A stretch of DNA of 64,000 bases from a virus. Shown here in pieces: positions 639-42,996 of this stretch. The stretch spans positions 1-64,000 of IMG/VR virus record IMGVR_UViG_3300044732_001653. One strand, given 5' to 3'. The notes under the pieces are model-generated. The model saw nothing but the letters and a program-made list of their open reading frames with translations, searched no databases and was not told the origin of the DNA. The position numbers were made by a program, and so were the translations under genes. Position 1 is the stretch's first letter; the number at the start of each line of letters is the position of its first letter.

Positions 639-2150
639 ATGCAGCCATTCGTCGACATCCGGCGGTTCATTCCGCTCCTGAAGCACACCCGCGGCGACTT
701 CGCCGGGCGGAACTTCCTGCTTGAGGCGTGGCAGGACGCCTACCTCAACGACCTCTTCAACACGAAAAACCCCGACGGGACGAGGCAATACAGGACTTCC
801 CTGCTTGCCCTGCCGCGGAAGAACGGCAAGAGCCAGATCGCAGCCGCGATCGGCTTGTACATGGCCTTCTGCGACGACGAGGGCGCCGAGGTGATCGTGG
901 CGGCCGGCGACCGCTCCCAGGCGTCGATCCTCCACGACGCCGCCAAGCAATTGCTGGAGTCCTGCCCTGCCCTGGCCCGCAAGGCCAAGGTCTACCGAAA
1001 CAGCATCGTCGTCCCGAGCCGCAACGCCAAGATGCTCTGCATCTCCAGCGAGGCGGGGACCAAGCACGGCTACAACCCGTCGTGCGCCCTGATCGACGAG
1101 TACCACGTCTTCCCCGACCGCGAGCTTGTCGACGTCCTTGAGACCGGCATGGGCGCTCGAAAGCAGCCCCTCACGATCTACATCACCACGGCCGGCACCG
1201 ATATGCAGGGGCCGTGCTACAAGGACTGGAAGCGGGCCGAGAAGATTCGCGACGGTGCCCTCGTCGACCCGACGTTCCTGCCGTGCATCTTTGCCGCCGA
1301 CCCCGCCGATGACCCGTTCGATGAGGCCACTTGGAAGAAGGCGAATCCGAACTACGGCGTCACGCTCAAGCCGGAATACTTCCACCAGTTCTCGGCCAAG
1401 GCGCAGCAGTCGCCGTCCGACGAGACGGTTTTCAGGACGCTCCACTTGAACCAGTGGATGTCCTCGACGACGAAGTGGTTGAAGGCCGGCGCCTTTGAGA
1501 ACTGTGCCGAGCAGCCCCGGCCGGGCGGCGAGCGGATGTGCTACTGCGGCATCGACTTGGCCTCGACGTTCGACACTACCGCGTTCGTGGCGATCTGGCC
1601 CGACGACGACGGAACCTACGACATCTACGCCCACTTCTTCATCCCCGAGGAGAACGCCGCCAAGCGAGCCAAGGAGGACCGCGTGCCTTACCTCGAATGG
1701 GCCAAGGCCGGATTTGTTACACTTACGGGAGGGGACGTGACTGACTACGACATCGTGCGGGATCACGTTCTAGCTTTCTGCGAGAAGAACGCAGTCAGGG
1801 GCGTGGCTATCGACCGATACAACGCCACGCACCTGACTACCCAGCTAGACAACGAGGGGGTCGTGATGAAGCCCTTCGGTCAAGGCTTTGTGTCGATGAA
1901 CGCCCCGACGAAGCTCCTTGAAACCCTGGTAATTCAGGGTCGATTGCGGCACGGCGGCAACCCGGTTCTTCAGTGGCAGGCAAGCAACGTCCAGGTGAAG
2001 ACCGACGACGCGGGGAACGTGAAGCCGACGAAGAAAAACAGCAGTTCGACTGGCCGCATCGACGGCATGGTGGCCTTGATCATGGCCTTGGGCATCGCCT
2101 CGGGCGAGGCCAGGAACGAGCCCGACGAACCAATGCTCATGGTGTTCTGA
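639..2150 (+). CDS. terL: Terminase large subunit
   Basis: ATPase-nuclease motor that pumps DNA into the prohead. The protein is 503 aa, normal for the family. The N-terminal ATPase has an adenine/Walker A segment LPRKNGKS (residues 58-65) and Walker B CALIDEYHVF with D153-E154. The C-terminal RNase H-like nuclease has the acidic segments CGIDLASTFDTTAF, GVAIDRYNA and RIDGMVALIMA. Starts at ATG 639 and stops two bases before the portal gene. The short region between terS and terL is rich in TTCGCGAA-type palindromes. Confidence 0.95.
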   Translation: MQPFVDIRRFIPLLKHTRGDFAGRNFLLEAWQDAYLNDLFNTKNPDGTRQYRTSLLALPRKNGKSQIAAAIGLYMAFCDDEGAEVIVAAGDRSQASILHDAAKQLLESCPALARKAKVYRNSIVVPSRNAKMLCISSEAGTKHGYNPSCALIDEYHVFPDRELVDVLETGMGARKQPLTIYITTAGTDMQGPCYKDWKRAEKIRDGALVDPTFLPCIFAADPADDPFDEATWKKANPNYGVTLKPEYFHQFSAKAQQSPSDETVFRTLHLNQWMSSTTKWLKAGAFENCAEQPRPGGERMCYCGIDLASTFDTTAFVAIWPDDDGTYDIYAHFFIPEENAAKRAKEDRVPYLEWAKAGFVTLTGGDVTDYDIVRDHVLAFCEKNAVRGVAIDRYNATHLTTQLDNEGVVMKPFGQGFVSMNAPTKLLETLVIQGRLRHGGNPVLQWQASNVQVKTDDAGNVKPTKKNSSSTGRIDGMVALIMALGIASGEARNEPDEPMLMVF

Positions 2151-2152
2151 AG

Positions 2153-3799
2153 ATGGATCAAGCCGACGAAGCAGTCCTTGAAATCATCGAGAACAGGAGC
2201 AATCTGGCCCGAATCTTTGAAGAGATTCGTGACACCCGACGGACGACGTCCGGCATTACCGTCAGCCCCGAGACGAGCCTGGAGTGTAGCGCCGTCCTCG
2301 CCTGCGTCAGAGTGCTGTCGGAGTCGATCGCCAGCCTGCCGATGAACCTCTACCGTCGCCTCCCCGGCGGCGGCAAGGAGATCGCCGAAGACCAGCACCT
2401 CCACGAACTGCTGCACTACCAGACCAACGACTGGATGACGGCGTTTGAGTGGAAAGAGTGGATGATGAGCCAGTTGCTCCTCTGGGGCAACGCCTACAGC
2501 AAGATCATCCCCGGCCCGAACGGCGCCGTCGACAAGCTGGAGCCGCTCCACGCCTCGCGGATGACGGTCAAGCGGCTGGAGAACGGCAAGCTCCGCTACT
2601 ACTACCAAGTCCCGCCGACGCTCTTGAACCCGAGTCCCGACCCCGTCGAGTATCGGCAGGAGCAGATTTTTGTGATTCGCTGGCTCTCGTCCGATGGGGT
2701 GACAGGCTATGTGCCCGTGACCCTCTCCCGCGAGGCCATCGGCCTTGCCAGGGCGGCAGAGATTCACTCCTCGGCGTTCTTCGGGAACAACGCCCGCGGC
2801 GGCGCTGTCTTTGAGACCGACCAGCCCCACAAGCCAGAGGTGCTGCGACGGTTCAAGGATCAGTGGAACGAGATGCTCCAGGGTCCGAAGAACGCATTCT
2901 CGACCGTCGTGGTCCCGTATGGATTCAAGAAGAGGCCGGAGGAGATCAACAACGCTACCGCCCAGCTTCTTGAGACGCGGAGATTCAGCGTCGAGGAGGT
3001 GAGCCGCATCTACCGCGTGCCGGGCCATCTCCTCGGCGATATGTCGAACGTGCGATACAACACGGTCGAGCAGTCGGCCATCGACTTCGTCACGTTCTCG
3101 CTCATTCCGTGGTGCCGCCGCATCGAGATGGCCTGCCGCCGCGACCTCGTCGTGGACGACAAGACGTACTTCGTCGGCTTCGACCTCAATGCCCTGATGG
3201 CTGGCGACTACGAGGCGAAGGCGAAGCACGCCCGTGAGTTCTTCAACATGGGTGCGCTCGACGTCAACGAGCTTCGGGCGTCCATCGGGATGAACCCGCT
3301 GGAGGGCGAGGAGGGCAAGAAGCGATTCGTTCAGGTCAACATGGCCCTGCTTGAGGCGTTCACCGCCGCCAACCCGACAGGCCAGAAGCTCACCGACCTG
3401 CTCAAGCCCGAACCGGCCAAAGAACCGGCCATCCCCGGCGAGAAGTCGGCCGAACCGGCCGAGGATCAGGCCGAGCCGCCGGCCAAAGAACCGGCCAAGC
3501 GTTCGGCGCCAGACCTGTTTGAGGTCTTGTTCATGACGAACGTCCGTCGGCTCGCCGGCTTGGAGATCGACGGCATCTTCGACCGCCGCGGCAAGCCGGA
3601 GAAGGTCGTCGCCTGGATCGACCAGATGGGCGAGCGGATGAAGTCCGAGCTACGCGACTGTGCAGAAGCTACCGGGCGAGACATCGCAGAGTTTTCGGCC
3701 AATTGGGTGGCCCGCTCGCGAGAAATCCTGCTGGAGTGCCAGCGGAGTGGCCAGAAGTACGAATCAGTCCAGTCGGAGTGGTGCGACAAGCACCTGTGA
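2153..3799 (+). CDS. Portal protein, HK97 gp3-like
   Basis: Dodecameric ring at the capsid vertex through which DNA passes. The 548-aa product shows the family core: SLECSAVLACVRVLSESIAS near residue 45, LLLWGNAYSKI, and YRVPGHLLGD near residue 290. The start is ATG 2153; the frame is also open upstream but there overlaps terL. The C-terminal 120 residues are unusual: a Pro-Glu-Lys linker with repeated KEPA blocks (around 415-455), then a helical tail. That extension may contact the neighbouring capsid or ferritin-like proteins, which is only inference. Confidence 0.93.
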   Translation: MDQADEAVLEIIENRSNLARIFEEIRDTRRTTSGITVSPETSLECSAVLACVRVLSESIASLPMNLYRRLPGGGKEIAEDQHLHELLHYQTNDWMTAFEWKEWMMSQLLLWGNAYSKIIPGPNGAVDKLEPLHASRMTVKRLENGKLRYYYQVPPTLLNPSPDPVEYRQEQIFVIRWLSSDGVTGYVPVTLSREAIGLARAAEIHSSAFFGNNARGGAVFETDQPHKPEVLRRFKDQWNEMLQGPKNAFSTVVVPYGFKKRPEEINNATAQLLETRRFSVEEVSRIYRVPGHLLGDMSNVRYNTVEQSAIDFVTFSLIPWCRRIEMACRRDLVVDDKTYFVGFDLNALMAGDYEAKAKHAREFFNMGALDVNELRASIGMNPLEGEEGKKRFVQVNMALLEAFTAANPTGQKLTDLLKPEPAKEPAIPGEKSAEPAEDQAEPPAKEPAKRSAPDLFEVLFMTNVRRLAGLEIDGIFDRRGKPEKVVAWIDQMGERMKSELRDCAEATGRDIAEFSANWVARSREILLECQRSGQKYESVQSEWCDKHL

Positions 3800-22635: not shown

Positions 22636-23750
22636 GCATCAGCGTCACGAACACCAAGTCACCGATCACCGTCGTGGACGACAAGGTCACGATCAAAGTC
22701 ACAGGTGGCTTCGGTCCCCAGGGGCCTGCCGGAAGCAGCGAGAGCGGCGGCGGGGCTATCGCCTCGATCAATGGCCAGACCGGGACGATCACGATTGCCT
22801 ACGCTGGCGGCGTGACGGCGGCAGGCGGAACGATCACGCTTGGGTACGTCTCGCCGCCGGTGACGAGCGTGGCGGGCCGGACGGGGGCGGTGACGCTCTC
22901 GACCGGCGACGTCAGCGGCCTGGGGTCGCTCGCGACGAAGTCGTCGCTGGGAAACATCACCATCGCCGGGGCAGTCGGGACGGTGGCTGGACGTGTTCTC
23001 ACCACGGACGCCGATGGTTTGGTCGTGACGTCGGCGGTGGGGGTGGGGCTGGTCTATGAAGACGACTCAATTCGGCCCGACATTCCGTACATCAAATCGC
23101 AGCTTGCGGACGTGGCAAGCTCCGGCTCATACCTCGATCTGACAAACAAGCCGACGATCCCCGTGACGTCAGTGGCCGGAAGGACCGGCGCCGTCACGCT
23201 GACGACCTCCGACGTCTCGGGCTACGCGGCACCTCCTGTGACGAGCGTGGCCGGGCGAACTGGGGCTGTGACGATCGCCGCTGCGGACGTGTCGGGGCTT
23301 TCGGCCGCGGCGCCCGTTCAGTCGGTGGCTGGCAGGACCGGGGCGGTCACGCTGACGACCTCCGACGTCTCGGGCTACACGGCACCTCCTGTCACCAGCG
23401 TGGCCGGTCGCACGGGTGCCGTGACGATCGCCGCTGCGGACGTGTCGGGGCTTTCGGCCGCGGCGCCCGTTCAGTCGGTGGCCGGAAGGACCGGCGCCGT
23501 CACGCTGACGACCTCCGACGTCTCGGGCTACACGTCGCCGCCCGTGACGAGCGTGGCGGGTCGCACTGGGGCTGTGACGCTGACGGGCTCCGACATCAAC
23601 GTGGCGACAACGACGGCCCTCGGCGTGGTCCAGGTGGGCGTCGGGCTGACGGTTACGGCCGGTGTCCTGTCCGGCCCTAACATCACCAGCGGCACGGCCG
23701 CCCCGTCCGGCGGATCGTCCGGCGACATTTACCTGAGGTACTCAGCATGA
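22632..23750 (+). CDS. Tail fibre with TGAV repeats
   Basis: 372 aa, TTG start overlapping the preceding stop (TTGA), with GAGGTGA upstream. After a short collagen-like GPQGPAG, seven copies of SVAGRTGAVTL-type repeats (about 22855-23590), alternating with DVSGY/DVSGL linkers, form a beta-structured shaft as in many phage fibres. The end PSGGSSGDIYLRYSA resembles a fibre tip. Nearly identical DNA repeats may recombine. Confidence 0.88.
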   Translation: MSISVTNTKSPITVVDDKVTIKVTGGFGPQGPAGSSESGGGAIASINGQTGTITIAYAGGVTAAGGTITLGYVSPPVTSVAGRTGAVTLSTGDVSGLGSLATKSSLGNITIAGAVGTVAGRVLTTDADGLVVTSAVGVGLVYEDDSIRPDIPYIKSQLADVASSGSYLDLTNKPTIPVTSVAGRTGAVTLTTSDVSGYAAPPVTSVAGRTGAVTIAAADVSGLSAAAPVQSVAGRTGAVTLTTSDVSGYTAPPVTSVAGRTGAVTIAAADVSGLSAAAPVQSVAGRTGAVTLTTSDVSGYTSPPVTSVAGRTGAVTLTGSDINVATTTALGVVQVGVGLTVTAGVLSGPNITSGTAAPSGGSSGDIYLRYSA

Positions 23751-24689: not shown

Positions 24690-25525
24690 TGTCACGCCAC
24701 GAATACCCATCACTTCGCCAGGGCCTCGTCGGCGCGTGGTGCCCGTCGCTGGGGGCAAGCGGTCTTTCGTTGATCGACCGTAGCGGGCGGAACAATCACG
24801 GCACGCTCGTCAACATGGCTGGCCAGGACAACTGGCGGGCGAGCGGCAGCGGTGTGGCGCTTAACCTTGACGGCACAAACGACCATGCTGTGCTCGCGGG
24901 TTTTGTGCCCGCATCCAGTATTTCTGTGTCTGCGTGGGTCTACCTAAAGTCGCAACCAACGGGTAGCAATCTCGCCGGGATTTTCAGCCGGTGGGGAAAT
25001 AACGCGGCTTTTGACGCTACCGACGCTTTTACGCTCAATATCGGAGTCGGACAAGGGTTTCGTTTTTTTCTTGGAGGCGTGAACGCAGGAGTCACAACCG
25101 GATCGTCGGCTGTCACTTTGTCACAATGGACTCATCTAGCAGCAACATACAACGGCGCAACCATCACCATTTTTGTTAATGGAATATCAGGAGGTTCGAC
25201 CGCCGCATCCGGTTCGATTACACAATCAACTGTCGAAATGCGTATCGGAAAAGATGTGGCAGCTAGTGCTACAGACAAAAACCTTGACGCGTTTTGCGAC
25301 GATATCCGCCTCTACAACCGCGCCCTCACCCTCGCCCAAATCCGCCTCCTCGCCTCCCGTCGCGGGATCGGGCTGACGCCGCTGCCGGATCGTGCGGCGG
25401 GGTTGCCGAGGAAGTTGAGCGTCAACGTGGGCGGAACGTGGCGGGCGGCGGATGCATACGTTCATAACGGGACAGACTTCCGGCTCAGTGAAGCCAAGAT
25501 CAACGTCGGAGGCGTGTGGCAGTGA
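24689..25525 (+). CDS. LamG/concanavalin-like receptor-binding protein
   Basis: 278 aa. Residues about 35-205 form a Laminin-G-like jelly roll: [47 protein letters not shown] and [15 protein letters not shown]. Such domains bind sugars, so a receptor-binding role is likely. Base composition drops to about half GC in 24930-25310, while flanks remain GC-rich, suggesting a swapped domain. The C-terminal tail carries two short NVGGTWR/NVGGVWQ repeats. Confidence 0.85.
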
Positions 25526-26481
25526 ACCGCGCACTGATCACCGGCATCACCGGCCAGGACGGCTCCTACCTTGCGGAGTTGCTGCTGGCCAAGGGCTACG
25601 AGGTGCACGGGATCATCCGCCGCTCCAGCACGTTCTCGACAGGCCGGATCGAGCATCTCTACGACCGCCTCCAACTCCACTACGGCGACGTGACCGACGG
25701 GTCGTCGCTCTGCCGGCTGGTGCGGACGATCCAGCCCAGTGAGGTCTACAACCTCGCCGCCCAGAGCCACGTCCGAGTGAGCTTCGACCAGCCCAGCTAC
25801 ACCGCCGCCGCCACCGGGCTCGGGACGCTGGCCCTGCTGGAGGCCGTGAGAGACGTCGCCCCGGCCGCCAGGGTCTATCAGGCGTCGTCGAGCGAGCAGT
25901 TCGGCAACGAGCCGGCGCCGCAGTCGGAGGCGACGGCGTTCAGGCCCAGGAGCCCCTACGCCTGCGCGAAGGTGTTCGCCCACCACATCGCCGTCAACTA
26001 CCGCGAGAGCTACGGGCTCCACGTTTCCTGCGGCATCCTCTTCAACCACGAAAGCCCCCGCCGCGGCGAGACGTTCGTGACCCGGAAGATCGCCCAGGCG
26101 GTCGCCAGAATTGCCGCCGGCCGGCAGGAAAAGCTCGCCCTCGGGAACCTCGGCGCCCAGCGAGACTGGGGCTTCGCGGGCGACTACGTCGAAGCCATGT
26201 GGCTCATGCTCCAGCAGGAGCGGCCCGACGACTACGTCATCGCCACCGGGGAGACGCACTCCGTCCGAGAGTTCCTCGACATCGCCTGCGAGCGGGTGGG
26301 CCTCGACCCCGCCGCGATCGTGACTCACGACCCGAGGTACGACCGGCCCGCCGAGGTCGACTGCCTCCTCGGGGACGCGAGCAAGGCCCGTCGAGCCCTC
26401 GGCTGGTCGCCCCGCGTCGGCTTCCGCGACCTCGTCCACATGATGGTCGACGACGAGGTGCGGCTGTGTTCGGCTTCCTGA
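25522..26481 (+). CDS. gmd: GDP-mannose 4,6-dehydratase
   Basis: 319 aa short-chain dehydrogenase fold; NADP site [20 protein letters not shown] at the N-terminus, then SSSEQFG and catalytic YACAKVF (YxxxK). [20 protein letters not shown] is characteristic of Gmd. Converts GDP-mannose to the 4-keto-6-deoxy sugar, first step to GDP-L-fucose. A GTG start at 25522 overlaps the LamG stop. It is shorter than E. coli Gmd, mainly at the C-terminus. GDP-fucose synthase is encoded at 42049. Confidence 0.93.
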
Positions 26482-37793: not shown

Positions 37794-37821
37794 ACGCCGC
37801 ACGGCATTGGAGGCCGATCGA

Positions 37822-37995
37822 ATGTCAACGCTTGTGATTTCCAGAAGGATCGGCGAAGGCGTCAAGATCGGCGACGACATCTTCATTCGTCTCGCCCGAG
37901 CCAAGCGCGACGGCGCGTTTCGGCTCGTCATCGAGGCGCCCCGGTGCGTCAAGATTCTCCGCGAGGAGCTTGTCGGCACGGAGGCGAAGAAGTGA
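37822..37995 (+). CDS. csrA: CsrA/RsmA-like RNA-binding regulator
   Basis: 57 aa. MSTLVISRRIGEGVKIGDDI and FRLVIEAPRCVKILREEL match the CsrA core; the RNA-contacting Arg of the HREE motif is kept (LREE). CsrA binds GGA-containing mRNA leaders and changes translation. Own promoter upstream. A phage copy could redirect host or phage mRNA; targets unknown. Confidence 0.92.
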   Translation: MSTLVISRRIGEGVKIGDDIFIRLARAKRDGAFRLVIEAPRCVKILREELVGTEAKK

Positions 37996-38180: not shown

Positions 38181-38455
38181 GTCTGCTTTGCTTCATGGAC
38201 GAAGAACCAATCGCTACTACGCTCGACACCGAGGTGAGAGATTTCCTGTCGAAGCTCCCAGCCGGCGGTACCCGCGTTGGGTGCAATTACATCTGGTTCG
38301 CGTTTGAGCATCGCCGCGTCGAGCCCTGCTCTCTTGAGGAGTTTGAGGCTGCGGTGGCGAGAGTCGCCCAGACATCGACGGTCTACGGCCGTCTGTTCGT
38401 CGAGGGCGTCGATGCGGCGGAAGTAAGACGTGTTTACCTTGAGGTCTTCCGGTGA
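38177..38455 (+). CDS. Hypothetical protein
   Basis: 92 aa, ATGA overlap. It opens MSLLCFMDEEPIATTLDTEV and carries GCNYIWFAFEHRRVEPCSLE. Soluble, mixed alpha/beta. Unrecognised. Directly upstream of the first Tat-signal gene. Confidence 0.6.
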   Translation: MSLLCFMDEEPIATTLDTEVRDFLSKLPAGGTRVGCNYIWFAFEHRRVEPCSLEEFEAAVARVAQTSTVYGRLFVEGVDAAEVRRVYLEVFR

Positions 38456-38943
38456 GCGAACGCCAATCCCGTCGATCATTCCTTGGCCTTCTCTCCGCTG
38501 TCTCGGCGGCCCTAGCAGCCGGCGTGCGTCTCCCCGACGCCCCGATTGCAAAGGCCGCCGAGACGGCGCCGGTACAGCCTTGGTCGGACGACGAGGCGAT
38601 GATGCTCGACGCCCCGCCTGTGTCGCCGCCCGACCGAACGCCGGCCGGTCTGCTCGCCATGCTGCGGGAGATGCTGCCCCAGTGCGTCGCGGTGGCGTGG
38701 GAGCAGAACATCATCGTCGGCGAGTTGCTTGAGACGATCGTGACGTACCGGCTCGACCCCGAGGCGGCCAAGAGTCGTCGCGACCCATTTGGCCTCGATC
38801 TTGATCGCATCGAGAAGGGCTGGCCGTCGTCAGTGACGGTCCACGACACTTGGCCGACGGAGGACATCGGCCTCCTCGGCGAGTACCGCCGTGAGTTTGT
38901 GATTCCGAAGTCGACTCGCGAAATTGTTATCACCTGGAGGTAG
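38452..38943 (+). CDS. Secreted protein with Tat signal, member 1
   Basis: 163 aa, GTG start (GTGA overlap). N-terminus reads SRRSFLGLLSAVSAALAAG, a textbook twin-arginine signal (SRRxFLx) followed by an A-region and a likely cut after AKA near residue 35. The mature part contains PAGLLAMLREMLPQCVAVAW and no known domain. Exported folded. Part of the Tat cluster with TatA at 39858. Confidence 0.8.
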   Translation: MSERQSRRSFLGLLSAVSAALAAGVRLPDAPIAKAAETAPVQPWSDDEAMMLDAPPVSPPDRTPAGLLAMLREMLPQCVAVAWEQNIIVGELLETIVTYRLDPEAAKSRRDPFGLDLDRIEKGWPSSVTVHDTWPTEDIGLLGEYRREFVIPKSTREIVITWR

Positions 38944-38946
38944 GGG

Positions 38947-39177
38947 ATGAGCGACAATCCGCCAGAAGTAATCGTGACCCGCGAGATATTCGACGCCCTG
39001 AGTTCAGGTCGCGGCGACTGGCATCACACGGTCCTGCCGGGGGAAGCGGCGGTCGACGTCATCTACTACGAGAATGACGTCCGCAAGAGCTACATCAGCA
39101 TCAACCTCGACGCCGCCGAGGCGTTTGCGGCTGCGATCGTGGCGTGCGCGAATGAGATGAGGGCCGCGGGCGCATGA
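38947..39177 (+). CDS. Hypothetical protein
   Basis: 76 aa. Opens MSDNPPEVIVTREIFDALSS, with the middle DVIYYENDVRKSYISINLD. Ribosome site GGAGG just ahead. No signal. Between two Tat-signal genes. Confidence 0.6.
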   Translation: MSDNPPEVIVTREIFDALSSGRGDWHHTVLPGEAAVDVIYYENDVRKSYISINLDAAEAFAAAIVACANEMRAAGA

Positions 39178-39812
39178 ACATCTCCCGTCGATCATTTGCC
39201 CGCTCGATCATCGCCGCCGTGGCCGGCGCGACGGTGCTTCGTCAGGCCGTGGCGACTCCGGTCGAAGCGGAATGCCACAAGCACACCGTCGAGGAAATCT
39301 GCGACACCTTTGGCGTCCCGGTCAACTTGGTGACAGAGGGTCCGCGGACGATCATGGAGAAGGGGTACGCCTTCGACCATGAGGCGTCCAATGAGTGGAA
39401 GTCGTATTCGCTCCAGCCCCGCCGGCTATCGGTAAGCGTGAGCGTCTCACGGGAACTGCTGGAAGACTCCCCTCTCTCAGTCTCGACGATTGTTCAGAGC
39501 CGGCTTGCCCTCGCCTTGGCGAAGGCTGTCGACGATCAGTGGTGCAAGGGGGCCGAGTACACCGTCTCGACGATCTGCAATGGCGATCTCGCAAACCCCT
39601 GGCTCACCTACACGCACGTCGCCACCGAGGACAAAGACTATCGGATGCAGCGGCTCCGCGATGAGTGGCGTCGGATGCACGTCGGCCCCAGAAGCGTGAC
39701 CGCGCTGCCCGAAGGCTGGAAGTGCGGCTCATACTCAATGGCCGACGAGTGGCATTCGCTCGCTCGCGGTCGATTCGACTTCTCGCTTGACGATCAAAAG
39801 ACACCCCGCTAG
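39174..39812 (+). CDS. Tat-exported protein with HK97 capsid-like segment, member 2
   Basis: 212 aa. Starts MNISRRSFARSIIAAVAGAT (Tat signal). Residues about 60-125 match the spine-helix region of HK97 capsid proteins: SVSVSRELLEDSPLSVSTIV, then LALAKAVDDQWCKG, parallel to STRMSSEVVEDSLISMADAV in the phage capsid protein. The remaining C-terminal part is not capsid-like. It may be a capsid-derived module exported by Tat. An unusual combination; the true role is unknown. Confidence 0.72.
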   Translation: MNISRRSFARSIIAAVAGATVLRQAVATPVEAECHKHTVEEICDTFGVPVNLVTEGPRTIMEKGYAFDHEASNEWKSYSLQPRRLSVSVSVSRELLEDSPLSVSTIVQSRLALALAKAVDDQWCKGAEYTVSTICNGDLANPWLTYTHVATEDKDYRMQRLRDEWRRMHVGPRSVTALPEGWKCGSYSMADEWHSLARGRFDFSLDDQKTPR

Positions 39813-39815
39813 ACT
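39787..39815 (+). promoter_or_regulatory. Promoter for tatA-like gene
   Basis: TTGACG (39787-39792), 17-base spacer, TAGACT (39810-39815). It lies 43 bases before ATG 39858, overlapping the end of the Tat-signal gene. Confidence 0.65.
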
Positions 39816-39857
39816 CCACGCCACGTCTTTGTTCGATCCCCCATGAAGGAGGTTCCC

Positions 39858-40061
39858 ATGCTGTTCGCGTTTTTCGGTGTCGGCACAATCGAGATGGTGA
39901 TCATCGGTGCCGTGTCGGTGATGCTCTTCGGCGGTCGCTTGCCGAAGGTCGCTCGATCCATCGGCCAGTCGATCGTCGAGTTCAAGCGTGGTTTCTTGGA
40001 GGTCGAGGCCGAGTGCGCCGAGATCAACAAGGCCATCGAGTCGAAGGAGGTGCGGGCATGA
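39858..40061 (+). CDS. tatA: TatA/TatE-like translocase component
   Basis: 67 aa. MLFAFFGVGTIEMVIIGAVS is the short TM helix, followed by the FG hinge (LFGG) and an amphipathic helix with LPKVARSIGQSIVEFKRG, the TatA pattern. AAGGAGG lies 5 bases ahead, so the ATG at 39858 is preferred over the one at 39843. TatA builds the export pore for folded proteins. It has its own promoter and is flanked by Tat-signal proteins at 38452, 39174 and 40927. Confidence 0.93.
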   Translation: MLFAFFGVGTIEMVIIGAVSVMLFGGRLPKVARSIGQSIVEFKRGFLEVEAECAEINKAIESKEVRA

Positions 40062-40682: not shown

Positions 40683-40937
40683 ATGAATCCGATCACCCAG
40701 CACGTCAAAGCCAACGCCCGACTGCGTCGCAAGATCGCCCGGCTTGAGGACCGCATCGCGACGATCAAATCGACCACGGCCAATCTCATCACGCTCGCCG
40801 ACTTCAAGGGCTTTGGGGATCACCCGATCACCGTGCGGGCGGCGGCAGAGATCGGCTGGGTGCGGATGACGCCGGAGCAGCGGGATCAACTGGCCGAGCA
40901 ACTCAAGGCCCTCCACGGAGAGACCCATGCGTCGTAG
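40683..40937 (+). CDS. Small coiled-coil protein
   Basis: 84 aa, start 3 bases after the tRNA-like element. NARLRRKIARLEDRIATIKS is a short coiled coil. Its C-terminal part reads MTPEQRDQLAEQLKALHGET. Unrecognised. Confidence 0.6.
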   Translation: MNPITQHVKANARLRRKIARLEDRIATIKSTTANLITLADFKGFGDHPITVRAAAEIGWVRMTPEQRDQLAEQLKALHGETHAS

Positions 40938-41487
40938 AGACTGGCTGAAATCCCTCGCCGTTCTGGCCGTCGTCCCGATGATTGGCGTCCGCAAGGCCGT
41001 CGCGTCGGCAGAAGCCGTGCCGGAGACCCTGCCTGGGGTTGCGCCGGCGCCGCCGCCCCCGGCGGCAGAGCCGGTTGCTGGTCCGTCACCCCGAGTCTGG
41101 CCCCCCGAGGCGATCTGGATCAACGGCGAGCCGAGCGATGGGGCCATGGCATTCGGCGGCCCCAGAGACGGCGAGGTTATGACGGTCGGACCTACGAAGT
41201 ACATGACCTACCAGCATTTGCGGTGCTGCTCTGTGCCAATCAGGGGATGGTCGGTCGATGAGCGGGTGTACGAGATGCACCAGTATTCCCGCGAGCGAAT
41301 CGTCCTGAGTACCCCGAACGTGCGGATTTTCCTCGATGTGTGGTGCTACGCAGGCGCCGGGCTCACGGCGACGCCCGAGTCGAAGGCCGCGGCACTCAAG
41401 TGGGCACACAAGAACTACGGGCACCTGATCTCGGACTCATACCGTTCCGCTGCGGATATCAGGAGAAACGTCAGGGGGCTTCAATGA
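40927..41487 (+). CDS. Tat-signal protein with GGPRDG motif, member 3
   Basis: 186 aa. N-terminus MRRRDWLKSLAVLAVVPMIG is a twin-arginine type signal (RRxWLK), cut likely at AVA or AEA near residue 25-30. A Pro-Ala linker follows, then a small domain with AFGGPRDGEVMTVG, the same motif as the small proteins at 44926, 47736 and 47963. A Tat-exported member of that family. Shares 11 bases with the preceding gene. Confidence 0.72.
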   Translation: MRRRDWLKSLAVLAVVPMIGVRKAVASAEAVPETLPGVAPAPPPPAAEPVAGPSPRVWPPEAIWINGEPSDGAMAFGGPRDGEVMTVGPTKYMTYQHLRCCSVPIRGWSVDERVYEMHQYSRERIVLSTPNVRIFLDVWCYAGAGLTATPESKAAALKWAHKNYGHLISDSYRSAADIRRNVRGLQ

Positions 41488-41690: not shown

Positions 41691-42052
41691 TGGAGAGTCT
41701 TGAGGACATTCAGGTCGGGGAGGTTGTGGTGGTCTGTGGCTCTGGCCGGTGTGAAACAAAGCGCGTCGCCACGGTGTCGAAAGTAACCAAGCAACACTTC
41801 CTGCTCGACGGCAGCGACTGCAAGTTTCGCAAAAGAGACGGAGGCATGGTCAGCGATAGCCACTGGCACTTCGTCATGGCGAATCGACCAGAGCCCGGCG
41901 AGGTTGAGGAGATCGAGGCAGATCGCAAAGCCCGCAACGCGCGTGGCTTTGTGCAGGACTACATCGAGTCCATCCGCCACACCCCGGCCGCATTCGTCCC
42001 GATTGCCAAGTTCATCAAAGAGAACATGAAACCGGAGAAGGACGACGCATGA
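41690..42052 (+). CDS. Hypothetical protein
   Basis: 120 aa, start ATG 41690 shares the stop of the previous gene. QVGEVVVVCGSGRCETKRVA suggests a small beta domain; the C-terminal half is helical and charged. Upstream of GDP-fucose synthase. Confidence 0.6.
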   Translation: MESLEDIQVGEVVVVCGSGRCETKRVATVSKVTKQHFLLDGSDCKFRKRDGGMVSDSHWHFVMANRPEPGEVEEIEADRKARNARGFVQDYIESIRHTPAAFVPIAKFIKENMKPEKDDA

Positions 42053-42996
42053 CCCTGAAAGACAAGCGAATCCTCGTCACGGGCGGCACGGGCTTCCTCG
42101 GTCAGGCGGTCGTCAGGCGGCTGCGGGCCGTGGCGCCGCTGGCGGATGTGGCGGCGGCGAGCAGGCGAGACTGCAACTTCACCGACGCCCACCAGACCGC
42201 CCGGTTCTTCCACCGCAACCCAGCCGACATCGTCATCCACCTCGCCGCGAACGTCGGCGGCATCGGGAAGAACCAAGCCGAGCCGGCGTGGATCATGCAC
42301 GACAACCTCGCGATGGGCGTGAACGTCGTGAATGCGGCCTGCGAGCATGGAGCCAAGCTCGTCTACGTCGGCACGACCTGTTCCTACCCCCGCGACCTGC
42401 CGATGCCGTATACCGAAACTGGTCTGTGGGACGGCTACCCCGAGGCGACGAATGCTCCCTACGGCATCGCGAAGAAGGCCATCGGTGAGTTCGTCATCGC
42501 CTGCCACCGCCAGCATGGCCTCAAGGCCGCGTACCTCCTGCCGGCGAATCTCTACGGCCCAGGCGACAACTTCGACCCAGCGACCAGCCACGTCATCCCG
42601 GCGATGATTCGACGGTTCGTCGAGGCCAAGGAGCGAGGCGAGCCGGAGGTGACTTGCTGGGGGACCGGCAATGCAAGCCGCGAGTTCCTGTACGTCGATG
42701 ACGCAGCCGACGCGATCGTAAGAGCGGCCGAGGTCGTCGACACGCCGGAGCCGATCAATTTGGCTGGGGCGGCGACGATGTCGATCCGCCTGCTGGCAAA
42801 CTATATTGCCGGGGCGGTTGGCTACACGGGCTCTATCAAGTGGGACGCCTCCAAACCCGACGGCCAACCGGCCAGGATGCTCGACGGGGCAAGGGCGTGG
42901 GAACGACTCAACTGGGGGCCGAAGACCGCGATTCAGGATGGTCTTGAATCGACGATAAAGTGGTATTCTGAGTATAGGAGTCTGCGCAATGGCTAA
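42049..42996 (+). CDS. fcl: GDP-L-fucose synthase
   Basis: 315 aa, SDR fold: Rossmann GGTGFLGQAVVRRL, GTTCSYPRDLPMPYTETGLW (catalytic Ser replaced by Thr, Cys kept), YGIAKKAIGEF (YxxxK) and NLYGPGDNFDPATSHVIPA with the conserved His. It catalyses epimerisation and reduction of the Gmd product to GDP-L-fucose. With gmd at 25522 the pathway is complete from GDP-mannose though genes lie 16 kb apart. ATGA overlap upstream. Confidence 0.93.
   Translation: MTLKDKRILVTGGTGFLGQAVVRRLRAVAPLADVAAASRRDCNFTDAHQTARFFHRNPADIVIHLAANVGGIGKNQAEPAWIMHDNLAMGVNVVNAACEHGAKLVYVGTTCSYPRDLPMPYTETGLWDGYPEATNAPYGIAKKAIGEFVIACHRQHGLKAAYLLPANLYGPGDNFDPATSHVIPAMIRRFVEAKERGEPEVTCWGTGNASREFLYVDDAADAIVRAAEVVDTPEPINLAGAATMSIRLLANYIAGAVGYTGSIKWDASKPDGQPARMLDGARAWERLNWGPKTAIQDGLESTIKWYSEYRSLRNG

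What the first reader, a model, noticed from the sequence alone, without database searches (positions are those of the whole stretch)
39174..39812. Tat-signal protein containing an HK97 capsid-like spine segment
Seen: after a twin-arginine signal, residues about 60-125 follow the same pattern as the phage capsid protein: R-L-x-V-S-x-x-V-S-R-E-L-L-E-D-S with a long helix and D-x-x-x-x-x-G, against KKLAVSTRMSSEVVEDS and DGCGWIGDG in the capsid protein. The rest is unrelated. Inference: a capsid-derived domain captured by an exported protein, perhaps a decoy or assembly partner.
Basis: partly seen in the sequence, partly recalled or inferred. Interest (0 to 1): 0.82.

Follow-up and report, generated by a model that had tools for sequence, protein, structure and literature searches.

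The report
Exported phage protein with capsid-like core
A bacterial virus carries, next to its own copy of an export-machine part (TatA), a fast-changing protein tagged for export whose core looks like a short piece of a viral capsid protein joined to portal-like scraps; what it does is not known.

Summary
ORF 39174-39812 has a twin-arginine signal, and residues 68-127 match Pfam Phage_capsid above its cut-off (E 4e-7). Against 7,902 ORFs of 14 related phage records, a clade capsid HMM finds (E up to 1) nine true capsids, this ORF and its positional counterpart in one relative, nothing else. "The rest is unrelated" is only partly right: residues 33-98 and about 151-183 weakly resemble the portal protein, the second-best of 83 own gene families. 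The window is a 71.5-kb environmental phage record. The next gene is a phage tatA; two more Tat-signal ORFs flank it. In a phage about 95% identical, positions 39197-39746 are replaced by a diverged allele (about 26% identity), with junctions inside the RR-motif codons and just before the tatA promoter; a third relative has a third allele. The shared core is the helix matching the HK97 spine. I read it as a rapidly swapped, Tat-exported accessory protein built on a captured capsid E-loop/spine segment, most likely acting at the cell envelope (superinfection exclusion or inter-phage competition). Export is inferred; function is a guess. Structure prediction was uninformative. Recombination debris remains a serious rival.

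The parts
39174..39812 (+). Tat-signal protein, 212 aa, with capsid-like core (the finding)
   Evidence: ORF; Pfam; clade HMMs
39174..39257 (+). Twin-arginine signal peptide, about residues 1-28 (SRRSF, hydrophobic stretch, AVA before the likely cleavage point)
   Evidence: sequence; pattern scan; cleavage point inferred by eye
39270..39338 (+). Portal-like stretch, about residues 33-55 (TVEEICDTFGVPVNLV); also alignable to the capsid E-loop, so ambiguous
   Evidence: alternative alignment
39375..39554 (+). Capsid E-loop/spine-like segment, residues 68-127
   Evidence: Pfam PF05065 E 4.4e-7; clade capsid HMM; hhalign; MSA-driven AF2
39624..39722 (+). Portal-like stretch, about residues 151-183 (MQRLRDEWRRMHVGP..SVTALPEGWK)
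   Evidence: clade portal HMM; permuted construct; Smith-Waterman
39197..39746 (+). Block replaced between this phage and relative L070 (flanks 92-96% identical)
39787..39815 (+). Sigma-70-like promoter (TTGACG-17-TAGACT) in the constant 3' flank, in front of tatA; overlaps the ORF's last codons
   Evidence: conserved in L070; consensus match only
39858..40061 (+). Phage tatA (PF02416). ORF opens at 39843, but AAGGAGG precedes the ATG at 39858, the likelier start
   Evidence: relatives; sequence
38452..38943 (+). Second Tat-signal protein; its mature domain is a family shared by several relatives
40927..41487 (+). Third Tat-signal protein; signal conserved in L070, mature part largely replaced after 41057
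38947..39177 (+). Conserved small ORF directly upstream, marks synteny with L070 and L071
6061..7464 (+). The phage's real HK97-type major capsid protein, used for comparison
   Evidence: Pfam 2.4e-30
1973..3799 (+). The phage's real portal protein, used for comparison
   Evidence: Pfam 1.3e-85

Best explanation
The gene encodes a fast-evolving, Tat-exported phage accessory protein. Its mature domain descends from the E-loop/spine part of an HK97-type capsid protein, with portal-like sequence added. It is exported with the help of the host TatBC and the phage's own TatA, and alleles are exchanged as a cassette between the Tat-signal codons and the tatA promoter. SHOWN: the signal sequence, capsid similarity, the adjacent tatA, and allele replacement. 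INFERRED: capsid ancestry rather than convergence, export, and that the protein is functional. GUESSED (about 0.25 on its own): that it acts in the periplasm or cell envelope against superinfecting or competing phages, which would explain why alleles differ between near-identical phages.
For: Pfam Phage_capsid above cut-off, an unbiased search of 24,736 models. Capsid and portal are ranks 1 and 2 of 83 own gene families. Specific among 7,902 ORFs of 14 records. The positional counterpart in L070 also matches capsid (10.9 bits against best shuffle 6.2), and its weak unbiased hits are portal (phrog_12, E 0.026 whole protein, 0.0059 segment) and major head (phrog_267, 0.39 segment). The three alleles are similar to one another outside the signal (E 3e-4 to 1e-3; 0/1000 shuffles). 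Clean cassette boundaries. A phage tatA lies next to a Tat-signal ORF in 7 of 10 tatA-bearing records.
Against: The matched capsid stretch is only 45-80 residues. The L071 allele does not match the capsid on its own (0.2 bits; 172/1000 shuffles). The whole-protein structure prediction failed (pLDDT 33), so there is no sign yet of a stable fold, which Tat export normally needs. No homologue beyond three alleles, so selection cannot be measured. Several other blocks of this accessory region are also replaced between the two phages, so swapping is not special to this gene. No functional evidence at all.
Confidence: 0.42

Rival explanations
1. Recombination debris: scraps of head genes from another phage were inserted between a Tat-signal start and the tatA promoter and stay open by chance. 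The product has no selected function.
For: Pieces are short and, for the portal, out of order. The accessory region is mosaic with several replaced blocks. Structure prediction fails.
Against: Two alleles at the same place both carry a capsid-like helix and portal-like scraps, all three are mutually similar, and all three are open with coding-type GC3.
Confidence: 0.25
2. The resemblance is convergent: an unrelated alpha-helical exported protein happens to fit the 'V-S-x-E-L-L-E-D-S + amphipathic helix' pattern.
For: Only one helix and a strand match. L071 keeps only the helix pattern. A weak rival hit of L070 is Mob_synth_C (E 0.015 whole, 0.0015 segment). No fold match.
Against: Curated Pfam cut-off passed, shuffle controls, specificity among 7,902 ORFs.
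Confidence: 0.18
3. Cytoplasmic immune decoy: before export, the folded capsid/portal mimic binds host sensors of phage head proteins and sequesters them, or carries them out by Tat hitchhiking.
For: Capsid and portal proteins are known triggers of bacterial defences (review PMC10286901). Tat can carry a bound partner along (PMC4273604). Hypervariability and co-encoded TatA would fit.
Against: No host, sensor or binding data. The pieces lack a full fold, while some sensors read the fold (own knowledge).
Confidence: 0.06
4. Capsid assembly partner or inhibitor acting on heads.
For: The similarity is to a capsid subunit segment. Capsid homologues such as SaPI Ccm redirect assembly of helper-phage heads (PMC8569155).
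Against: The Tat signal and neighbouring tatA point out of the cytoplasm. The segment lacks most of the capsid fold.
Confidence: 0.04

Closest known systems
Phage_capsid PF05065 (HK97 gp5-type major capsid)
   Same: About 60 residues covering the end of the E-loop and the spine helix, E 4.4e-7
   Different: Lacks the P- and A-domains and most of the fold; carries a Tat signal; 212 aa against 467 aa
Phage_portal PF04860
   Same: Two short stretches resemble neighbouring portal regions
   Different: Below Pfam's cut-off, order permuted, no portal architecture
SaPI Ccm and other capsid homologues with a changed role (PMC8569155)
   Same: A capsid-derived protein in an accessory role
   Different: Ccm is a capsid protein homologue that redirects capsid assembly; this is a short segment with an export signal
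Phage superinfection-exclusion proteins of the envelope (own knowledge)
   Same: Small, exported, variable, accessory
   Different: No sequence match; no such protein on the Tat route was found in the paper library

Membership tests
HK97-fold major capsid protein (PF05065) | Sequence match above the curated cut-off | tested here: met
   30.0 bits against 24.2, residues 68-127
HK97-fold major capsid protein (PF05065) | Full-length fold: N-arm, E-loop, P-domain, A-domain | tested here: not met
   Only profile positions 59-118 of 280 matched; no match to the remainder. It contains a capsid-like segment; it is not a capsid protein.
HK97-fold major capsid protein (PF05065) | Spine helix and E-loop strand in the structure | tested here: inconclusive
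   Whole protein pLDDT 33; segment with capsid rows shows strand and helix at 70-83 but is MSA-driven; Foldseek no significant match
Phage portal protein (PF04860) | Match above the curated cut-off | tested here: not met
   21.1 bits against 39.1; permuted construct 26.9
Tat substrate | Twin-arginine motif, hydrophobic stretch, AxA-type site | tested here: met
   MNISRRSFARSIIAAVAGATVLRQAVA
Tat substrate | Actual export by TatABC | not testable with these tools
   needs an experiment
TatA (neighbour gene) | TatA_B_E domain above cut-off | tested here: met
   35.4 bits against 21
Superinfection-exclusion protein | Blocks infection by related phages | not testable with these tools
   none

The most novel reading that the evidence does not exclude
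A phage-encoded export module (TatA plus swappable Tat-tagged cargo) in which one cargo is a mimic assembled from capsid and portal segments, used to bind host sensors of those proteins in the cytoplasm and remove them across the membrane, with alleles tuned to different sensors.
Probability: 0.05. Interest if true: 0.92.

Novelty: new variant of a known kind. Interest (0 to 1): 0.5.

Why it matters
If functional, it would be a case of a capsid segment reused as an exported protein, and a phage that brings part of its own Tat machinery for swappable cargo. Neither was found in the paper library searched (that library lacks most subscription journals). It gives a defined locus for asking what phages export by Tat.

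Tried and rejected
Searches for homologues in phage records, viral contigs and GTDB genomes gave only the two syntenic alleles, and no host could be assigned. PDB sequence searches and Foldseek gave nothing significant. By eye, the N-terminal mature part of the L070 allele looked terminase-like and L071 portal-like; neither is supported by profiles, so both are dropped. The idea that all Tat cargo of these phages are scraps of structural genes was tested: among 17 Tat-signal ORFs only this gene and its L070 counterpart match head genes, so it is rejected. A similarity of the third Tat protein (40927) to 'GGPxDG' phage proteins was by eye only and PHROGs gave nothing.

Full report
What is there. 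The window is the first 64,000 bases of a 71,517-base IMG/VR virus record encoding a large terminase, portal and HK97-type capsid. ORF 39174-39812 encodes 212 aa starting MNISRRSFARSIIAAVAGATVLRQAVA, a canonical twin-arginine signal. It overlaps the preceding stop codon (ATGA) and has coding-type codon-position GC.

Is the capsid resemblance real? Pfam Phage_capsid matches residues 68-127 with E 4.4e-7, above the curated cut-off, and PHROG major head proteins match with 3.5e-6 and 2.4e-4. A capsid HMM from 50-odd capsids of this phage clade scores the protein at 13.8 bits, against a best of 4.0 among its composition shuffles. Of 83 HMMs built from the phage's own genes, capsid is first and portal second. 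Across 7,902 ORFs from 14 related records, the capsid HMM at E up to 1 hits nine capsids, this ORF (E 0.008) and the ORF at the same place in a relative (E 0.09), nothing else; the best non-portal hit of the portal HMM in its true reading frames is again this ORF (E 0.04). A profile-profile comparison of the three-allele alignment with the clade capsids aligns 42 columns, E 1e-4, probability 57%.

Phage_portal matches residues 33-98 (E 2e-4, below cut-off). When the C-terminal part is placed in front of the N-terminal part the portal score rises to 26.9 bits, because residues 151-183 resemble the portal region that precedes the one resembled by residues 33-55. The N-terminal piece can also be aligned to the capsid E-loop, so its origin is ambiguous. 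The portal evidence is suggestive, not proof: total 11.5 bits, best shuffle 9.0.

Alleles. L070 (IMGVR_UViG_3300042353_000511) is about 92-97% identical over most aligned parts, and its capsid is identical. At this gene, positions 39197-39746 are replaced by an unrelated-looking block of similar length. The left junction lies in the SRRSF codons and the right junction at EW-x-SLARG, just before a conserved sigma-70-like promoter, TTGACG-17-TAGACT, that precedes tatA. The L070 allele is a 197-aa Tat protein which also matches capsid (10.9 bits; best shuffle 6.2), with weak portal and head hits in PHROGs. L071 carries a third, 126-aa allele that keeps the helix pattern but has no significant capsid match. 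The mature parts of the three are mutually similar (E 3e-4 to 1e-3; 0 of 1000 shuffles). No further copy was found. Other accessory blocks are replaced between the two phages too, so swapping by itself is ordinary here.

Setting. The next gene is a phage tatA (PF02416). AAGGAGG in front of the ATG at 39858 marks that as the likelier start. Besides the window, nine of 31 related records tested carry tatA; in seven of these ten tatA records (window included) a Tat-signal ORF lies directly 5' of it. In four of the seven that ORF is a different small-domain family. Two further Tat-signal ORFs lie at 38452 and 40927. Of 17 Tat-signal ORFs found, only this gene and its L070 counterpart match head genes.

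Structure. AF2 on the three alleles gives pLDDT 33, uninformative. Residues 35-132 (98 aa) folded together with capsid rows give a strand, a short helix and a 23-residue helix at pLDDT 70-83. That result is largely imposed by the capsid rows, and Foldseek finds no significant PDB match.

Mechanism. Best reading: a Tat-exported accessory protein whose core derives from a capsid E-loop/spine segment, swapped as a cassette, probably acting at the envelope against other phages. Only the sequence facts are shown. Debris from recombination (0.25) and convergence (0.18) remain serious. An immune decoy is attractive because capsid and portal proteins trigger bacterial defences (PMC10286901) and Tat can export bound partners (PMC4273604), but nothing here tests it.

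Verdict. Observation confirmed. It is a protein containing a capsid-like segment, not a capsid protein. Novel in combination, function open.

Noticed in passing
39858-40061: Phage-encoded TatA, found with the window in ten phage records of this set, usually right behind a Tat-signal ORF; phage tatA was not found in the paper library searched.
   Followed up: partly
38452-38943 and L071:8748-9182, L072 and others: A second Tat-signal protein family with a conserved mature domain ending in I-x-V-x-W, shared across several related phages, including one record without a detected tatA (G015).
   Followed up: partly
40927-41487 and L070:11784-12203: Third Tat-signal protein: signal nearly identical in the two phages, mature part largely replaced.
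   Followed up: partly
37804-37995: CsrA-family regulator (PF02599) close to the Tat genes; also next to tatA in relatives such as L073.
   Followed up: no
25516-26481 and 42049-42996: Two nucleotide-sugar epimerase/dehydratase-like genes, and glycosyltransferase-like ORFs around 53.5-55.1 kb, suggesting glycan modification; judged by eye only.
   Followed up: no
23160-23581: The window matches the same part of the G001 record in several offset pieces, suggesting an internal repeat in a tail-fibre-like gene.
   Followed up: no
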